From: a virus
Reading direction: 5' to 3' (one strand)
DNA: 22,873 nucleotides
Virus record (IMG/VR): IMGVR_UViG_3300035092_000005
Span: 1 to 22,873 of that record
Below, piece by piece: positions 14,308 through 22,873 of this stretch. Made by a program: the position numbers and the translations under genes. The notes under the pieces were generated by a model. It did not search any database. It was not told where the DNA came from and was given only the letters and a program-made list of their open reading frames with translations. Position 1 is the stretch's first letter; each line of letters starts with the position of its first letter.

Positions 14308-14535
14308 ATGCCTGAATACAAACAGTACCGTCGTACCCAGATCGCAGAAATGACCGACTGGACGCCAGACTTCGATATGACAAATGTCTCTGTGACCGCT
14401 GTGGATCGGAATGCGGGGAGTCCTAAAGAGGGCGATAAAATCGCTCGCAACCCAGCTGACCATGATGACAAATGGCTCGTAGCAAAGGCGTACTTCGAAG
14501 CCAACTTTGAGGAGAATCATGCCAATAACACCTAA
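14308..14535 (+). CDS. conserved phage protein, 75 aa
   Basis: A 75-residue protein: YRRTQIAEMTDWTPDFDMTN, then VSVTAVDRNAGSPKEGDKIA, then KWLVAKAYFEANFEEN. This order (R-R-T-x-I-A-E-M, a middle S-V-x-x-x-D, then NP..H.D.WLVA..YF..N) recurs in many phages, where it has no known role. An AAAGGA site lies five bases before the ATG. Its end overlaps the start of the LexA-like gene by 17 bases, and its last codons supply that gene's GAGGAG site. Confidence 0.75.
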   Translation: MPEYKQYRRTQIAEMTDWTPDFDMTNVSVTAVDRNAGSPKEGDKIARNPADHDDKWLVAKAYFEANFEENHANNT

Positions 14536-14752
14536 GCAACAGAGAATTCTACACTTCATTTCCGGCTATATTCAGAGCAACAAACAAGCGCCGACAATCT
14601 CAGAAATCGGACACTACTTTGAAATGCGTTCCCCTGCAAGTGTTCATCAGGTATTAGTAGCGCTAGAGCGTCAAGGGTTGATTAAGCGAATACCCAATAT
14701 CAGCCGGGGAATTCAGATCGTTCAGCAGGAGAAGGAATTCAATGTCAGTTGA
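14519..14752 (+). CDS. LexA-type winged-helix DNA-binding protein without peptidase
   Basis: The ATG at 14519 has a perfect GAGGAG four bases upstream. The 77-residue product matches the LexA N-terminal winged helix over its length: ITPKQQRILHFISGYIQSN (3-21), recognition region PTISEIGHYFEMRSPASVHQ (25-44), LVALERQGLIKR and wing PNISRGIQIV. Full LexA has about 200 residues with a self-cleaving peptidase domain; here it is absent, so the protein cannot be inactivated by RecA-stimulated self-cleavage. It may compete with host LexA at SOS-type sites or control phage genes. It is coupled to the next gene by an 11-base overlap. Confidence 0.85.
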   Translation: MPITPKQQRILHFISGYIQSNKQAPTISEIGHYFEMRSPASVHQVLVALERQGLIKRIPNISRGIQIVQQEKEFNVS

Positions 14753-15209
14753 GATGCCGAAACGGATTCAGCGTAAACGAGAGCGCGGTTGGCGGATGCC
14801 TAAAGGCGTCGTCTATGTAGGGCGTCCGTCAAGGTGGGGAAATCCCTTTACCGTAGGCGAACAGTACTTTGCGGGTGAGCCTTATCTAGAAGTCTACGGG
14901 CATTTGATGGAAAGATTTGAATGGCAAGGTCAACTCGCAGGGCGTGTAACAGCAGAAAACTGTCTGCTTCTGTTCCGTGCATGGTGCGAGAAATATATGG
15001 AGCGAGGGCCGGGCGGCGAATGGATCGAAAGCTTGCGCGGCAAAGACTTGGCTTGTTGGTGCAAAGTTTTTGACAAGAACGGAAACCGAGTACCATGTCA
15101 TGGTGATATACTTCTTTCCTTAGCAAATGATTTACCAATGGAGGAAGTGTGCGCGCCGTTGACTACAACCAACTCAAACGAAAGCGATGTTCCAAATGTC
15201 AGAAGGTAA
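14742..15209 (+). CDS. DUF4326 family protein, 155 aa
   Basis: Residues 10-36 carry the DUF4326 signature (a basic run, then GWRMPKGVVYVGRPSRWGNP). A second conserved block, LRGKDLACWCK at 98-108, is followed by PCHGDILLSLAND at 118-130. The family occurs in phages and bacteria and has no established biochemical role; the conserved Cys/His residues near the end suggest a metal or catalytic site. AAGGA precedes the ATG. It overlaps the LexA-like gene upstream and the endonuclease VII gene downstream. The last 25 residues are not conserved and overlap that gene. Confidence 0.85.
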   Translation: MSVEMPKRIQRKRERGWRMPKGVVYVGRPSRWGNPFTVGEQYFAGEPYLEVYGHLMERFEWQGQLAGRVTAENCLLLFRAWCEKYMERGPGGEWIESLRGKDLACWCKVFDKNGNRVPCHGDILLSLANDLPMEEVCAPLTTTNSNESDVPNVRR

Positions 15210-15678
15210 GGAGTGTTAAATACTTCAATAAGACCTACCACCGTCCCGGCCCCTTGGCGGACTCCGCTATCGGTCTCGATGTAAGGACTGTGAATACACA
15301 GACTGCCGAGAATACGCCGAAGGCAACCGTCCTCGCAGAAATGCAAGGCTCAGGAAGTGGAGGGCGGCTAATCCAGAGAAGGCGCGAGCGAAGGACAGGA
15401 GGGGAAGATACAGATCGCTCTACGGGCTAACGCTGGATGAAGTTGAAGCAATTAAAGCCGCAAATGAGCACAGGTGCTGGATATGCAACAAGGCTCGAAA
15501 CGCTCTTTACATAGACCACGATCACGCTACTCGTAAGGTGCGAGGGGCGCTGTGCCCAGTTTGCAATACCTACTTAGGGAAGATTGATGACGACATCGAA
15601 ACGATGGAGCGAATGATTCAATACGTAAAAGGCGATCCGTGTCACGCAGATATCTTGCTGGAGCTAGCCAATCAATGA
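15149..15678 (+). pseudogene. endonuclease VII-like HNH nuclease, frameshifted
   Basis: A GTG at 15149 with GGAGG four bases upstream opens a frame with a first zinc site (KRCSKCQKVRSVKYFNKTYH). At a run of four C (15250-15253) that frame loses sense. Shifting back one base gives GLRYRSRCKDCE, a basic helix (ARLRKWRAANPEKARAK), GLTLDEVEAIKAANEHRC, and the endonuclease VII core: CWIC, DHDH at 15514-15525, KVRGALCPVCN and TYLG. Such enzymes cut branched DNA and Holliday junctions. One added C restores a 176-residue protein. Its last 14 residues (DPCHADILLELANQ) belong to another family, DUF4326. As written, the gene cannot give the full enzyme without a -1 frameshift. Confidence 0.82.
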
Positions 15679-15755
15679 GGTTCAAGTTAATTACGAGAGT
15701 GCCTAATGTTTCGCGCGGGATTCGACTCGTAGACCAGCCTGTCAATCCAAGTTGA
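15675..15755 (+). pseudogene. relict C-terminus of a second LexA-like winged helix
   Basis: A 26-codon frame from the ATG at 15675 (overlapping the endonuclease VII stop as ATGA) reads LITRVPNVSRGIRLVDQ, which lines up residue for residue with LIKRIPNISRGIQIVQQ at the end of the LexA-like protein encoded 1 kb upstream. The recognition helices are absent, so this fragment cannot bind DNA. The DNA differs clearly from the intact copy, so it is not a recent tandem duplication but a remnant of a diverged relative. Confidence 0.65.
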
Positions 15756-15764
15756 GAACGATCC

Positions 15765-18371
15765 TCAATCACCCTCATAAAGAAGTAATGCCTGGCTGAG
15801 TTTCTTTCCGGCTGTGTCGTCAGTTTGATGCGCTGCTACAATGTTCTCATCCCACACTGCATCTGCTATCAATCCGCTTGTGGGGAATACCGGATCAACC
15901 ACTGCGATTACAACTCCACACTCGTAGAGAAAGTAGTCAACACTCGTCCCCCCGGTGACCAGACCGATCGCAGCAGCAGCGGACGGGTAGACTGATTGGG
16001 TGACGCCTTTAACTACACCGGTCGGCGTGCTGCCGGGAATACTGATTGAGTAATCAATTCCATCTACTGTAATCGAAGGAGAGCCCGCGCCAATGGCCGA
16101 TGACTTCTTTACCCATAACCAGCCCATGCAGCCGAGCACCAAGAGCCGCGAGATGTCAATATCACCAGACTCAGCGGATTCAAGGCCGTAGTTCTGTCGT
16201 GCCTGTGATGAGCCCGCCTGTTGGCGGTAGTTAGTTTCGCTCAGCGGACGCTCATTAACCGCGCCAGTGCCACCAGTGGTATCAAACTGATCCTCATTAA
16301 CAGCGGTTGGGAATTTTGCTACGCAGCGCACGTCGCCGGGATCAGTCAAGTCTCCTAAGTCGTCAATGTATAAGTGACTGATCCAGCGGTTGGCATTGGA
16401 GCCGCTCGAGTCGCCGCCAAATAACAGGAAGCTTGTAAGTGAGGTCTGTCCATTTGTGAATTGATTGAACAAGGTCAATTCATTAACGCCGTCAACATAT
16501 ATCGCTACGTCTAAATCGTCAGCCCCGACAGCCATTAGCCACGAGATAGTAATGCGATAGAATGTGTTGACGGACAATGAACGAGTGCCGTCCGTTGTTC
16601 CCGCTCCCGCTGCCTGCCATTGCAGGACTCCAGCAGAAGTGATCGCCAGCGTTCCCAGTGCAGATCCCAACCCATTGTCGAGCGTGGCTATGGGCTCGGG
16701 AGTCCCCGAAGGGAGAGCGTCTGTGCGCCAGTAGAAACTCAACCTACCCGGATCAACGCTGATACTTTTACGTCCGATATTGCTATCCGGTACAAGCTTC
16801 AACGATGAATGCGAATATGGGCCACTCGGTTTGATTGTCGTATCCCAGACGGGAGCACCTGTAACGCGATCATAAAGATGGGTTCCACCTGTTGCCGCCC
16901 CTCCCGGTTCAAGAAAGACGATATTGCCTCCCTTTCCAAACAAACCAGACCTGACCGCCGAAATAATCTGACTGGACGTGAGCGGAGTCCCGCCTGCGTT
17001 ATCAGCCACTTCCTTCACCACGGAACCGCTGATCGCATCAGCGTAAGTCTGGCCACTATCTGTTAAAAACATTCCTTCCGCGATTTGCGCCACTGTTGGG
17101 ATATCACTGACGGCAGCAGGGGCGGCAGGTAAATTGTCAGTCTTGGCTTTGATTGCCCCAACTTCAGTATCGATGTAACCAGCGATTGTCCCGAGAGTTG
17201 AATTCACCGTACTGAACGCTCCGCTAATATCGGAAGCATCTGCTGGATCAGTAGGCAAGTTATCCGTCTTTGTCTTGATGGCCGCACTATCAGATTTGAC
17301 CGCTACGATGTCTGCTGAAATTGATACGCCAGCGGGAGCGCCTAAACGAGCAAATGCATCTCCCGTCATCGCGGGAGCTGTCGCGCCCTTCCAGTCGATC
17401 ACGTTGGAGTCGATTTGATTTGCAACAGTGAAGGCTAACTGGTCTGTCTTTGTCTTGATGGCGCCAGTATCACTCTTAGCGGCTGCTATGTCAGCACTAA
17501 TTGAAGCTCCAGATGGAGCACCGATACGCGCGTAAATGTCGCCAGTTAGAAAGTCGATGATTCGTTTGGCGATCGATCCCGCTGTCGTCATGCCCGACGT
17601 GAGAGCATTCCAGATGTCAGCAACTGAGTGGCTGCTTCGCGATGAGACCGTGGCGTCAAGGTTGTCCAGTTTGGCAGCTCGCGCATCAGTCCACACATCA
17701 TCAATGAGCAATCCACCTGCGGTGCCAGGAATAGCATCAGGAAGAGAGTTTATAGTTCCGGTGGGAGTAGCCTTGTCGAAGAACTTCTTGAAAGCTGCCG
17801 CGATCTGTCCGGCAGTTTCAGTTAAAGCCGTGCCAAGAATTTGTGAGAGGTTGGATTTAACTACGCCGGATGTAAAGTCCAGTTGTCCCGCCCCAGAACC
17901 AGAAGAAAGCAACACACTTGCGCCAATGTCCCGGCCTGTCTGTGTGGTTCCGCCCAGCTTCACCGCATTAGCATCTACCTGCCCGTTCGCAGGCTGATTG
18001 ATCTGTCCTGCCCCTGTACCTCTCGTGTATAAACCTCCGGCAGCTTCAGCGGCAGCATTAGGAAGTGCGGTTAATCCAAGCCTGACAGCATCCGTAGGAT
18101 CAGCGGCTGTTGTTACAATGTTGACTGTCTGTGGGACTGCGCCTGTGCCGGTGAAGTTGAAGCCAATGTTATTCCCATTCGTATCAGCTTGACTCATTGC
18201 GTACTTATAAAACCCTGTAGTCCCGTCCTCAGTGACAGTTCCGCCGCCAGCCGCAAACGTGCCATCAATACAACGCCGCACGGTCCAAGTCACGCCACTC
18301 TTGATCCCGCCTGTTGAGGCGTCAACCCCCTGGAACGTTAGAAACTGAGAGGCTACATTTTTTCTGTACAC
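15765..18371 (-). CDS. tail fibre / appendage protein with LamG-like domain, 868 aa
   Basis: A GTG-started 868-residue protein with AGGAGG ten bases upstream. Residues 1-95 form a beta domain common at the base of phage appendage proteins. A Gly/Ala-rich region follows with RLGLTALPNAAAEAAGGL. Two 32-residue repeats lie at 281-312 and 341-372 (ARxGAPxGxSISADI, then AxKSDxxAIKTKTDxL), with a partial third near 405. Residues about 540-680 resemble a LamG/concanavalin lectin sandwich, with LSFYWRTDALP and FYRITISWLM. The end holds IADAVWDENIVAAHQTDDTAG, a motif of phage structural proteins. Together this suggests a fibre that reaches and binds host surface sugars. It is the last gene of the right-hand leftward operon. 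Confidence 0.82.
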   Translation of the reverse strand: MYRKNVASQFLTFQGVDASTGGIKSGVTWTVRRCIDGTFAAGGGTVTEDGTTGFYKYAMSQADTNGNNIGFNFTGTGAVPQTVNIVTTAADPTDAVRLGLTALPNAAAEAAGGLYTRGTGAGQINQPANGQVDANAVKLGGTTQTGRDIGASVLLSSGSGAGQLDFTSGVVKSNLSQILGTALTETAGQIAAAFKKFFDKATPTGTINSLPDAIPGTAGGLLIDDVWTDARAAKLDNLDATVSSRSSHSVADIWNALTSGMTTAGSIAKRIIDFLTGDIYARIGAPSGASISADIAAAKSDTGAIKTKTDQLAFTVANQIDSNVIDWKGATAPAMTGDAFARLGAPAGVSISADIVAVKSDSAAIKTKTDNLPTDPADASDISGAFSTVNSTLGTIAGYIDTEVGAIKAKTDNLPAAPAAVSDIPTVAQIAEGMFLTDSGQTYADAISGSVVKEVADNAGGTPLTSSQIISAVRSGLFGKGGNIVFLEPGGAATGGTHLYDRVTGAPVWDTTIKPSGPYSHSSLKLVPDSNIGRKSISVDPGRLSFYWRTDALPSGTPEPIATLDNGLGSALGTLAITSAGVLQWQAAGAGTTDGTRSLSVNTFYRITISWLMAVGADDLDVAIYVDGVNELTLFNQFTNGQTSLTSFLLFGGDSSGSNANRWISHLYIDDLGDLTDPGDVRCVAKFPTAVNEDQFDTTGGTGAVNERPLSETNYRQQAGSSQARQNYGLESAESGDIDISRLLVLGCMGWLWVKKSSAIGAGSPSITVDGIDYSISIPGSTPTGVVKGVTQSVYPSAAAAIGLVTGGTSVDYFLYECGVVIAVVDPVFPTSGLIADAVWDENIVAAHQTDDTAGKKLSQALLLYEGD
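17256..17531 (-). repeat. two 32-codon repeats within the tail fibre gene
   Basis: Codons 281-312 (17436-17531) and 341-372 (17256-17351) encode near-identical segments starting AR(I/L)GAP and ending KTKTD(Q/N)L, separated by 28 codons. The pattern of small residues and regular K, D and I spacing suggests a fibrous, trimeric helical shaft. Copy number of such repeats often varies between related phages. Confidence 0.7.
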
Positions 18372-20586: not shown

Positions 20587-21000
20587 TTAATAGTTGTAAG
20601 CGAAACTGAGATGGTCGCCAAGCATCAGTGAAAGATCTGGAAGTAGTGTAACCGTCGCTCCCGTAAGAGCGTAGCTTGATGAGTGTTGCAGTAAGCCGTT
20701 GACGAACACTCGCAACGAGGCCGCGATTGGCACATGGGCTAGTACAAACTCTGAGGGAACAATACTCGCTATCTGCGTTTCTTCAAAGGCTGAACTACCG
20801 CCCGCTTCTCCCGGCGGTCCCTGTGGTCCGGTTGGTCCTACCGCTCCCGCTGGTCCGGGCTCACTGACTTCAAGAATCTCAACCCCAGTTTCTTCACTGA
20901 CTACGAGGGTGACTTCCTCAACTACTTCAACCGTGCCTGCTTCCTCGATGACGATTTCAAATTCATCGAGATCTACAACTACCTGTTCCCCAGTCGGCAT
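20587..21000 (-). CDS. collagen-like phage structural protein, 137 aa
   Basis: A 137-residue protein in three parts: a very acidic, valine-rich N-terminus (residues 1-47, e.g. EIVIEEAGTVEVVEEVTLVV), six Gly-X-Y triplets at 49-66 (GPAGAVGPTGPQGPPGEA) that can form a short collagen triple helix, and a C-terminal beta module with VFVNGLLQ and DHLSFAYNY. Short collagen segments trimerise phage fibres. Its ATG overlaps the stop of the gene upstream (TGATG). Confidence 0.85.
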   Translation of the reverse strand: MPTGEQVVVDLDEFEIVIEEAGTVEVVEEVTLVVSEETGVEILEVSEPGPAGAVGPTGPQGPPGEAGGSSAFEETQIASIVPSEFVLAHVPIAASLRVFVNGLLQHSSSYALTGATVTLLPDLSLMLGDHLSFAYNY

Positions 21001-21362
21001 CAGACTTTCTTCTCAAGGGTCAGAGTCCCGCGCAGTTTGCGCAATATGTTTCCGGCTGAATCGGTTACTTCAAAACGATAGGAAGCAGCATCCCATGTGT
21101 AGGTGTCGGTAACTTCGTCGGCAATGAAGATAGTGATCTTCTTGTTTGTGTAGTCGATGACGATGTTCTGATCCGCTGGGCCATCAGTGATGATCTGAAT
21201 TGGCTCGCTGTTATCGGGGCGGATGAAAAACAGGGCCGAGTCCAGACCGTCTAATGACAGCAACTCCCCAGCCTGATTGCGAAACTTGATGACACGAGTG
21301 AAGGATGCGCCCTGTTTGACAATGAAGTCCTTTTGCGGGGTTTTCTGGGGATCGGGTGTCAT
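21000..21362 (-). CDS. Ig-like/baseplate-type domain protein, 120 aa
   Basis: A 120-residue all-beta protein: FIVKQGASFTRVIKFRNQAG, LSLDGLDSALFFIRPDNSEP, ITIFIADEVTDTYTWDAASY, then RFEVTDSAGNILRKLRGTLT. The leading F-x-V-x-Q-G-x-x-F and the closing strand pair resemble the Ig-like N-terminal domains of baseplate upper (BppU-like) and head-tail decoration proteins. There is no ribosome site; a TATACT box nine bases before the ATG hints at a leaderless start. Confidence 0.75.
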   Translation of the reverse strand: MTPDPQKTPQKDFIVKQGASFTRVIKFRNQAGELLSLDGLDSALFFIRPDNSEPIQIITDGPADQNIVIDYTNKKITIFIADEVTDTYTWDAASYRFEVTDSAGNILRKLRGTLTLEKKV

Positions 21363-21400
21363 CGCAGCGCAGTATAGCGTACTTGAATGCTAGGGCTTAA
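21363..21400 (-). promoter_or_regulatory. possible promoter giving a leaderless transcript
   Basis: On the minus strand TATACT (21371-21376) ends eight bases before the ATG at 21362. A start of transcription seven bases downstream would fall within two bases of that ATG, and no Shine-Dalgarno site precedes it. The -35 match is poor (TTAAGC, 18-base spacing). A hairpin of GCTTAA and TTAAGC (21395-21413) lies just upstream, after the stop of the hydrolase gene. Confidence 0.3.
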
Positions 21401-21414
21401 TAATAATTTAAGCA

Positions 21415-22873
21415 TCAGAATGCCTGAATCTGCGTAGCGATAAGCGGAGCTACGATATCGTTACCAGCATCTGTGAGATGAACTAAATCGGAATAGTAAG
21501 TCGTATTCGTCTCGTCGCCTGTATCGCCTATTGTTGAGTTACCCGCAAGATTAGCTACCAGATAACCCTCCACAGCCGCATTCGAGGCGAGCAAACTATT
21601 AAACGATGCTCGCCAGGTTGCGAAATCGCCCGGCGTTCCTGAGTTGGAGCGCGGTAAGACGTTAGGGATGACTACATTAAAACCTACTTCCTGCGCCATG
21701 TGGCAGAGCGTCAGAATCGAAGCGAACGCTTGCGCCGCAGTCACTGAGGAGTCTGCATAGTGGTGGTTTGTGGCCTCCCACATTACATAGATGTTCTTCG
21801 ATCGCTTTGGATTATACAGAGGGGCGATCTGCGAGCCAAAATCCGCGATCATCTGCGGCGTTGTTTGTCCTGACACGCCGAAGTTCTGCACCACAAACTC
21901 AGACTCCAGCGGAGATCCGGCCGCGCAGTTACCGGCAAGACAATTATTGATCCTTACTTGTAAGGAATTGCTCATCAGCGAATTGCCATCGAGCACCAGC
22001 AATGGTGCTAATACTCCGCTTTCTTCGAGCGCGTAGGTCTGCATAAAAAACTGGTTAACTCGCTTGACCGTCGCGGTTGTGTGTGCCTGATCGAAGAGCC
22101 AGACTTCATCATAATCACCGTCCCAGTAACGTCCCGTTGTTAATCGATCTGAGCCGATCAATGAAGCGCGCAGATTTCCAGTTGAACGAAATACGAAACA
22201 TCTGACAGAGGTCGATTTAAGCAGGTTAATCGGCACATCCTCAAACCCGTTGACCCACGCCGCGCCGTTTCGCAGGTTTGAATTAGCGTTAGTTGAACTA
22301 ATGAGTTTATTCCCATCGCCACCGTGAAAGTCAAAGTAAGTTGCCGGACTACCGAGAAACCCGGCGCTATCCTGCGATCCGGTGCGGTGCTTCATGACGA
22401 AGTAGGCGGTCCTGATCGTCGTCACTTCTGTAAAACTCAGATAGTCGTTTGAGCCGTCCATTCGGATCGTAGGTTGGCCGTTCTGCTCATTAGTCTGATA
22501 TGACGGTTTATTTCCTGACGTAGTTTGCACCGCCGGATCATTTGTAGTTGAGACGTCCGGAACGGATGCGATCGGATCACCATCGACCAGCGACGTAATG
22601 TTGCGAGAACTCCAGCCGCGAAGTAAACCCGGGGCGGATGCGGGATCAAGTGGCACTACCGTCTCTACCAATCCGTGTTGGCGCATGGTCCCTATGATGA
22701 CGTTGTCTTTTTGCGCCAGTGAGTTGATGAGATTTTTAATAGCGGGTAGAACGTTGTTAACAAGATCATCGCGTAGGGCATCGACACTTGCTGGTGAGTC
22801 TCCCGGGTTCGGAATGATGGCTGCGGGACTGTCTGCGAAGTCTGCTATCGGAGGCTGTTGTTCAGTTACAACC
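21415..22873 (-). CDS. tail-associated LamG plus SGNH hydrolase (5' end outside window)
   Basis: The frame stays open past the ATG at 22686 to the window edge, adding 62 residues (SVDALRDDLVNNVLPAIKNL, then DNVIIGT), and that ATG lacks a proper ribosome site, so the true start lies outside. Counting from that Met, residues 20-215 are a LamG-type sandwich (GWSSRNITSLVDGDP, then YQTNEQNGQPTIRMDGSNDY). Residues 228-423 form an SGNH hydrolase: DGNS (233-236, catalytic Ser236), NFGVSGQTT with Gly270, EATNHH with Asn307, and DLVH with D400 and H403. Such phage enzymes remove acyl groups from capsular or lipopolysaccharide sugars. Confidence 0.88.
   Translation of the reverse strand, partial: VVTEQQPPIADFADSPAAIIPNPGDSPASVDALRDDLVNNVLPAIKNLINSLAQKDNVIIGTMRQHGLVETVVPLDPASAPGLLRGWSSRNITSLVDGDPIASVPDVSTTNDPAVQTTSGNKPSYQTNEQNGQPTIRMDGSNDYLSFTEVTTIRTAYFVMKHRTGSQDSAGFLGSPATYFDFHGGDGNKLISSTNANSNLRNGAAWVNGFEDVPINLLKSTSVRCFVFRSTGNLRASLIGSDRLTTGRYWDGDYDEVWLFDQAHTTATVKRVNQFFMQTYALEESGVLAPLLVLDGNSLMSNSLQVRINNCLAGNCAAGSPLESEFVVQNFGVSGQTTPQMIADFGSQIAPLYNPKRSKNIYVMWEATNHHYADSSVTAAQAFASILTLCHMAQEVGFNVVIPNVLPRSNSGTPGDFATWRASFNSLLASNAAVEGYLVANLAGNSTIGDTGDETNTTYYSDLVHLTDAGNDIVAPLIATQIQAF

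What the first reader, a model, noticed from the sequence alone, without database searches (positions are those of the whole stretch)
15631..15755. Recombination scar: DUF4326 tail and LexA tail fused after endonuclease VII
The endonuclease VII gene should end soon after its last helix. Instead it continues with DPCHADILLELANQ, which matches the PCHGDILLSLAND end of the DUF4326 protein encoded 0.5 kb upstream. It is followed by an overlapping frame whose product LITRVPNVSRGIRLVDQ matches the LexA-like C-terminus LIKRIPNISRGIQIVQQ. Two neighbouring gene tails in one stretch, both diverged from the intact copies, imply that a related phage with a different gene order recombined here.
Basis: partly seen in the sequence, partly recalled or inferred. 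Interest (0 to 1): 0.72.

Follow-up and report, generated by a model that had tools for sequence, protein, structure and literature searches.

The report
Nuclease gene inserted in gene tail
In this phage a DNA-cutting enzyme gene of the endonuclease VII family has inserted into the end of a neighbouring gene, which kept a working end while its spare old end was left stuck on the enzyme gene; four unrelated phages show the same arrangement, which looks like a selfish gene that copies itself into other phages.

Summary
15631-15678 is a second DUF4326 3' end, fused to an endonuclease VII (EndoVII) gene. 15684-15755 is the 3' end of a LexA-like gene.

The interpretation needs changing. The order is nested: LexA, DUF4326, EndoVII, DUF4326 tail, LexA tail. 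That fits successive insertions at gene ends, not a relative with another gene order.

(1) Four other virus contigs have the same DUF4326 / EndoVII / DUF4326-tail layout. In one of them EndoVII is inverted, yet the DUF4326 tails are still direct repeats around it. The inserted EndoVIIs form one clade. None of 114 other EndoVII C-termini matches the DUF4326 tail profile.

(2) The LexA remnant also occurs in the close relative L016, with different cargo upstream. L035 carries the intact LexA with the same C-terminus, directly facing tail genes.

Best explanation: an EndoVII-type (DHHRN) homing endonuclease gene entered the conserved 3' coding end of DUF4326. Repair supplied a replacement end and pushed the old end downstream. 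Fungal mitochondrial mobile ORFs have this architecture. Other phage EndoVII genes show similar target-end repeats (ASCH, terminase, others). Cleavage and homing were not tested; donor and native tails could not be told apart.

The parts
14519..14752 (+). Intact LexA-like winged-helix gene (LexA_DNA_bind), end of the rightward gene row
   Evidence: Pfam PF01726 E 3.5e-17; 85% DNA identity to L016 over 14518-14721
14742..15209 (+). Intact DUF4326 gene, target of the insertion
   Evidence: PF14216 E 6.4e-21
15093..15128 (+). First copy of the repeat: the 3' end in use by the DUF4326 gene (PCHGDILLSLAN)
   Evidence: codon comparison; reciprocal best match to the same segment of L126 among 131 DUF4326 proteins
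15149..15678 (+). EndoVII-family endonuclease gene (DHHRN motif); reading frame shifts by -1 near 15250, so it is broken in this assembly or needs a frameshift
   Evidence: frames; PF02945 E 1.5e-21; catalytic residues invariant
15631..15678 (+). Second copy of the repeat: displaced DUF4326 3' end, in frame with EndoVII, GDPCHADILLELANQ*
15684..15755 (+). Remnant of the 3' end of an older LexA-like gene (...KLITRVPNVSRGIRLVDQPVNPS*)
   Evidence: same remnant in L016 at 5552; intact gene in L035
15765..18371 (-). Convergent tail gene; together with the LexA remnant it forms the right-hand module shared with L016
   Evidence: 97.7% DNA identity for 15684-17156

Best explanation
The EndoVII gene is a free-standing homing-type element whose target is the conserved 3' coding end of DUF4326 (just upstream of the PCHADxLLExAN codons). 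In an ancestor it cut a resident DUF4326 gene there. Repair copied in, from an invading phage, a replacement DUF4326 3' end plus the EndoVII gene, and joined this to the right side of the break. The DUF4326 gene stayed whole. The resident's original 3' end, from the cut to the stop codon, was left downstream and in this phage fused to EndoVII. SHOWN: the repeat architecture, its recurrence in five phages with EndoVII in both orientations, single-clade EndoVII, and retained catalytic residues. INFERRED: cutting specificity, homing, which of the two tails is foreign, and one-sided repair. The LexA tail 3' of it is a second, outer scar of the same topology (intact gene, cargo, old gene end) left by a separate event that L016 shares. 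Its mechanism is less certain, because the L016 cargo is not a recognisable nuclease.
For: Five cases: window, L049, L113, L126, L289. In a scan of about 170 loci with DUF4326 tails, the only orphan tails are these five, all beside EndoVII. In L289 EndoVII is inverted and the DUF4326 tails are still direct repeats on the DUF4326 strand, so the repeat is a DNA-level property of the site, not a protein fusion. Four tailed EndoVIIs form one clade with the tail removed (97/88); the five are one side of a branch against the other repeat-flanked EndoVIIs, SH-aLRT 88. The motif R..R...WR..NP-x15-YGLT, scanned over IMG/VR, hit only four records, all of them tailed or inserted cases. The displaced copy always starts within about three codons upstream of the CH codons. 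Displaced tails keep the stop/start junction with the next gene in L049, L113 and L289. EndoVII-motif homing endonucleases are established (F-CphI, PMC6083498), and D, H, H, R, N and four Cys are invariant here. Closest solved sequence is the site-specific enzyme Hpy99I, E 1e-6. Same architecture in fungal mitochondrial mobile ORFs (PMC3630166). One-sided, illegitimate repair is described for T4 homing (PMC2988022). Other EndoVII genes are flanked by coding repeats of other genes: 6 of 96 (one is L289) against 6 of 1,199 random positions, p 9e-5.
Against: No uninvaded sister phage was found, so which tail is native is unknown. Tail similarity does not track body similarity in DUF4326 generally, and the L289 tails are both equally like Gordonia phage tails. 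That the DUF4326 hosts are unrelated is only borderline (AU p 0.051 for all four together; window plus L126 not rejected), so co-transfer of DUF4326 with EndoVII is possible for some pairs. The window's EndoVII is frameshifted. All five cases are metagenomic contigs. No cutting data.
Confidence: 0.72

Rival explanations
1. DUF4326 and EndoVII travel as one two-gene cassette formed once; the tail on EndoVII is a fixed part of the protein, kept for function.
For: Tail residues are conserved despite many synonymous changes; monophyly of window and L126 DUF4326 is not rejected, and their DUF4326 tails are mutual best matches.
Against: In L289 EndoVII is inverted and carries no such tail, yet the orphan DUF4326 tail is present; the tail is low-confidence in the model; the DUF4326 hosts are scattered on the tree, though weakly.
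Confidence: 0.14
2. One reading: recombination with a related phage that had DUF4326 followed by LexA, leaving both tails in one event.
For: Both tails are genuine and adjacent; the phages are mosaic.
Against: No relative with a full DUF4326-LexA order was found; the LexA remnant exists in L016 without DUF4326; the same DUF4326 tail behind EndoVII occurs in four unrelated phages.
Confidence: 0.06
3. Ordinary illegitimate recombination at gene ends, with EndoVII as a bystander cargo gene.
For: Phage junctions often lie at gene ends; the LexA scar has cargo without a nuclease in L016.
Against: Five insertions of one EndoVII clade at the same few codons of one gene family is not expected by chance.
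Confidence: 0.06

Closest known systems
Fungal mitochondrial mobile ORFs (Allomyces atp6; Glomus atp6, atp9, cox2, nad3), PMC3630166
   Same: Endonuclease ORF plus a replacement gene 3' end inserted in a gene; native 3' end displaced downstream; the two ends diverged in DNA
   Different: Mitochondria, not phage; other genes; here EndoVII family, target DUF4326, one case inverted; which end is foreign is shown there but not here
F-CphI / DHHRN homing endonucleases using the EndoVII motif, PMC6083498
   Same: Same catalytic motif, phage-encoded, motif in the C-terminal part of the protein, zinc Cys pairs
   Different: F-CphI targets psbA beside a group I intron; no duplicated target end is described in the sections read
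T4 free-standing homing endonucleases (Seg, Mob), PMC2988022
   Same: Genes beside or overlapping their target genes; co-conversion; one-sided illegitimate repair known
   Different: GIY-YIG and HNH families; the text searched had no mention of duplicated target ends
T4 endonuclease VII (Holliday junction resolvase)
   Same: Fold family and catalytic residues (PF02945)
   Different: Resolvase with the motif at the N-terminus; weaker match (E 0.012) than to the site-specific enzyme Hpy99I (E 1e-6)

Membership tests
Endonuclease VII family (PF02945) | Curated profile match | tested here: met
   E 1.5e-21, 76.5 bits against cut-off 23.6
DHHRN homing endonucleases (F-CphI family) | Conserved D, H, H, R, N and flanking CxxC pairs | tested here: met
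   D101, H102, H104, R110, N118, C89, C92, C114, C117 invariant in the alignment; list of residues
DHHRN homing endonucleases (F-CphI family) | EndoVII motif in the C-terminal part of the protein | tested here: met
   motif at residues 65-137 of 157 in L049
DHHRN homing endonucleases (F-CphI family) | Site-specific cleavage of the endonuclease-less allele | not testable with these tools
   needs purified protein
DHHRN homing endonucleases (F-CphI family) | Recurrent insertion of related endonucleases at one site in different genomes | tested here: met
   five contigs, same site
Mobile ORF with duplicated gene end (fungal mitochondrial type) | Intact gene end upstream, endonuclease ORF, second gene end downstream | tested here: met
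Mobile ORF with duplicated gene end (fungal mitochondrial type) | Downstream end matches uninvaded relatives, upstream end is foreign | tested here: inconclusive
   no uninvaded sister found; tail comparison uninformative
DUF4326 (PF14216), for the 15631-15678 tail | C-terminal motif of the family | tested here: met
   34.8 bits with a C-terminal profile
LexA-like winged helix, for the 15684-15755 tail | Homology to the C-terminus of an intact member | tested here: met
   E 2e-10 to L035 LexA, shared QPVNPS* ending

The most novel reading that the evidence does not exclude
EndoVII-family genes in phages are in large part end-restoring homing elements: they invade conserved coding sequence at either end of many phage genes (DUF4326, terminase, ASCH, others), carry a replacement for the gene end they interrupt, and leave the old end behind as a footprint that marks the cut site.
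Probability: 0.45. Interest if true: 0.78.

Novelty: new variant of a known kind. Interest (0 to 1): 0.62.

Why it matters
It would give a sequence footprint, a displaced gene end, that reveals homing endonuclease targets and approximate cut sites without experiments. It would show that a mobile-ORF strategy described in fungal mitochondria also operates in phages with a different nuclease family. Many phage genes annotated simply as 'endonuclease VII' would then be selfish elements rather than Holliday junction resolvases. It also explains odd fused C-termini and tiny orphan ORFs in phage annotation.

Tried and rejected
A single-sequence DUF4326 scan of viral contigs found nothing. The genome-contig scan returned matches dominated by ordinary DUF4326 tails; no tailed EndoVII turned up in them. 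Gapped peptide screen of EndoVII flanks: control signal from GC-rich low complexity was as high as observed, replaced by seg-filtered tblastx. Test whether the displaced tail follows the DUF4326 body: baseline correlation is about zero, so uninformative. Foreign-tail test for L289 against Gordonia phages: both tails equally similar. AU test on DUF4326 bodies: p 0.051, not a rejection. EndoVII C-termini of mycobacteriophages aligned to query position 139-140, but their own sequences lack the tail. T7-like EndoVII at the terminase start (vB_Yep_9) showed no long repeat. Searches with the flanks of L049, L113, L126 and L289 found no uninvaded sister.

Full report
OBSERVATION. The finding describes two gene tails behind an endonuclease VII (EndoVII) gene. 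Both are there. EndoVII ends in GDPCHADILLELANQ* (15631-15678), and an overlapping frame from ATG 15675 reads MRFKLITRVPNVSRGIRLVDQPVNPS* to 15755. Pfam assigns the upstream genes as LexA_DNA_bind, DUF4326 and Endonuclease_7. EndoVII itself is split over two frames: residues from 15149 lie in one frame and those from about 15253 in the -1 frame. Comparison with L126 suggests that both halves belong to one protein. It is a decayed gene, a sequencing error or a frameshift; this was not resolved.

LEXA TAIL. The window is a 22.9 kb IMG/VR record. Its relative L016 (a 64.6 kb contig) is collinear and mosaic with it. To the right of 15684 the two are 97.7% identical; immediately to the left similarity stops. 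L016 also has an intact LexA and the LexA remnant, but with a different 111-aa gene between them. L016's genome has no DUF4326 and no EndoVII. L035 has a single intact LexA with the same C-terminal ending (QPVNPS*), directly facing tail genes. So the remnant is the old LexA end, and cargo has been placed between a full LexA and that end.

DUF4326 TAIL IS RECURRENT. A scan with DUF4326 gave two contigs, L049 and L113, in which a second DUF4326 tail ends the gene that follows DUF4326. That gene is EndoVII in both. A scan with the EndoVII alignment gave L126, an AT-rich phage with the same layout. A DNA-pattern scan for a motif of this EndoVII clade hit four IMG/VR records: L049, L113, L126 and one new one, L289. 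In L289 EndoVII lies on the opposite strand to DUF4326; its DUF4326 gene is complete and an orphan DUF4326 tail lies beyond EndoVII on the DUF4326 strand. A scan of about 170 loci with DUF4326 tails finds orphan tails only in these five cases.

STATISTICS. A profile of 88 DUF4326 C-termini hits the four tailed EndoVIIs with E from 5e-12 to 4e-6 and none of 114 other EndoVIIs. With the tail removed, these four EndoVIIs are one clade, 97/88; with L289 added the five are one side of a branch against the other repeat-flanked EndoVIIs, SH-aLRT 88. Their DUF4326 genes are scattered in a poorly resolved tree. Holding all four together is borderline (AU p 0.051) and holding window with L126 is not rejected. 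Window and L126, sisters by EndoVII, are reciprocal best matches for the DUF4326 segment after CWC but not for the body. This suggests that the upstream tail travels with EndoVII, although body and tail similarity are uncorrelated in general. The two tails within a genome share 21 to 27 of 33 core nucleotides, and the displaced one always begins within about three codons before CH. In L049 the displaced tail shows 85-91% DNA identity over 46-54 nt to genuine DUF4326 genes, with a sharp edge at 1342.

MECHANISM. EndoVII-motif homing endonucleases exist: F-CphI defined the DHHRN family (PMC6083498). All its key residues are kept here. The nearest solved sequence is the site-specific enzyme Hpy99I, and fold search weakly ranks Hpy99I and PacI first. 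The tail is low-confidence in the model, pLDDT about 51. DUF4326 is predicted to act on ADP-ribose derivatives (PMC9503650). Insertion in a highly conserved motif suits a homing site (inference). The architecture matches fungal mitochondrial mobile ORFs, in which a foreign C-terminus plus an endonuclease ORF is inserted and the native end is displaced (PMC3630166). One-sided illegitimate repair after homing cuts is described for T4 (PMC2988022). I infer that the left end of the break recombined with the donor DUF4326 and the right end was joined without homology, leaving the resident 3' end. Cleavage, donor identity and direction of transfer are not shown.

WIDER PATTERN. Screening 96 EndoVII genes for coding repeats across their flanks gives 6 strong cases (one is L289) against 6 of 1,199 random positions, p 9e-5. 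They include a gene 3' end fused to EndoVII in L169, and gene 5' ends of ASCH (L172, with the relative L185), terminase (L145, with the relative L144, ending just before the P-loop, EndoVII inverted), and two other genes (L169, L200). The terminase assignment rests on the sequence motif (AAGPVGSGKTT) and gene order, not on a Pfam match. These were found after the DUF4326 cases and need an independent test.

VERDICT. This is a new phage variant of end-restoring mobile endonuclease genes, nested within a separate LexA junction.

Noticed in passing
window 15149-15678: The EndoVII gene needs a -1 shift near 15250 (C4 run); the homing gene may be decaying, or the assembly has a homopolymer error.
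   Followed up: partly
L169:1800-1826: A 27-nt insert with stop codons interrupts the conserved gene next to an EndoVII gene: codon TCG, then UAG, a UAGCC-GUAA-GGCUA hairpin (-7.1 kcal/mol, z -2.6), then TCG again. It recalls the T4 gene 60 translational bypass element (from memory) at a presumed homing site.
   Followed up: partly
L144 and L145, 2675-3461: Terminase-like gene with an inverted EndoVII gene before it and a truncated second start (MSLTYTAPPTLSRFMKSNAFGRMAAG) beyond, ending just before the P-loop codons.
   Followed up: partly
L290 (Yersinia phage vB_Yep_9) 2440-2930: Unannotated EndoVII gene between Rz and terminase in a T7-like phage; 300 records match the stretch, and the listed ones include phages without EndoVII and phages with it. 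A good laboratory system for homing tests.
   Followed up: partly
L016:5215-5547: 111-aa gene of unknown family sits between intact LexA and the LexA remnant, in the place of DUF4326-EndoVII; its stop codon lies inside the LexA remnant.
   Followed up: partly
L084:3007-5109: Two full DUF4326 genes 1.7 kb apart on one phage contig.
   Followed up: no
window 20833-22872 and 181-1432: The window alternates blocks 84-98% identical to L016 with unrelated blocks, a strongly mosaic pair.
   Followed up: no
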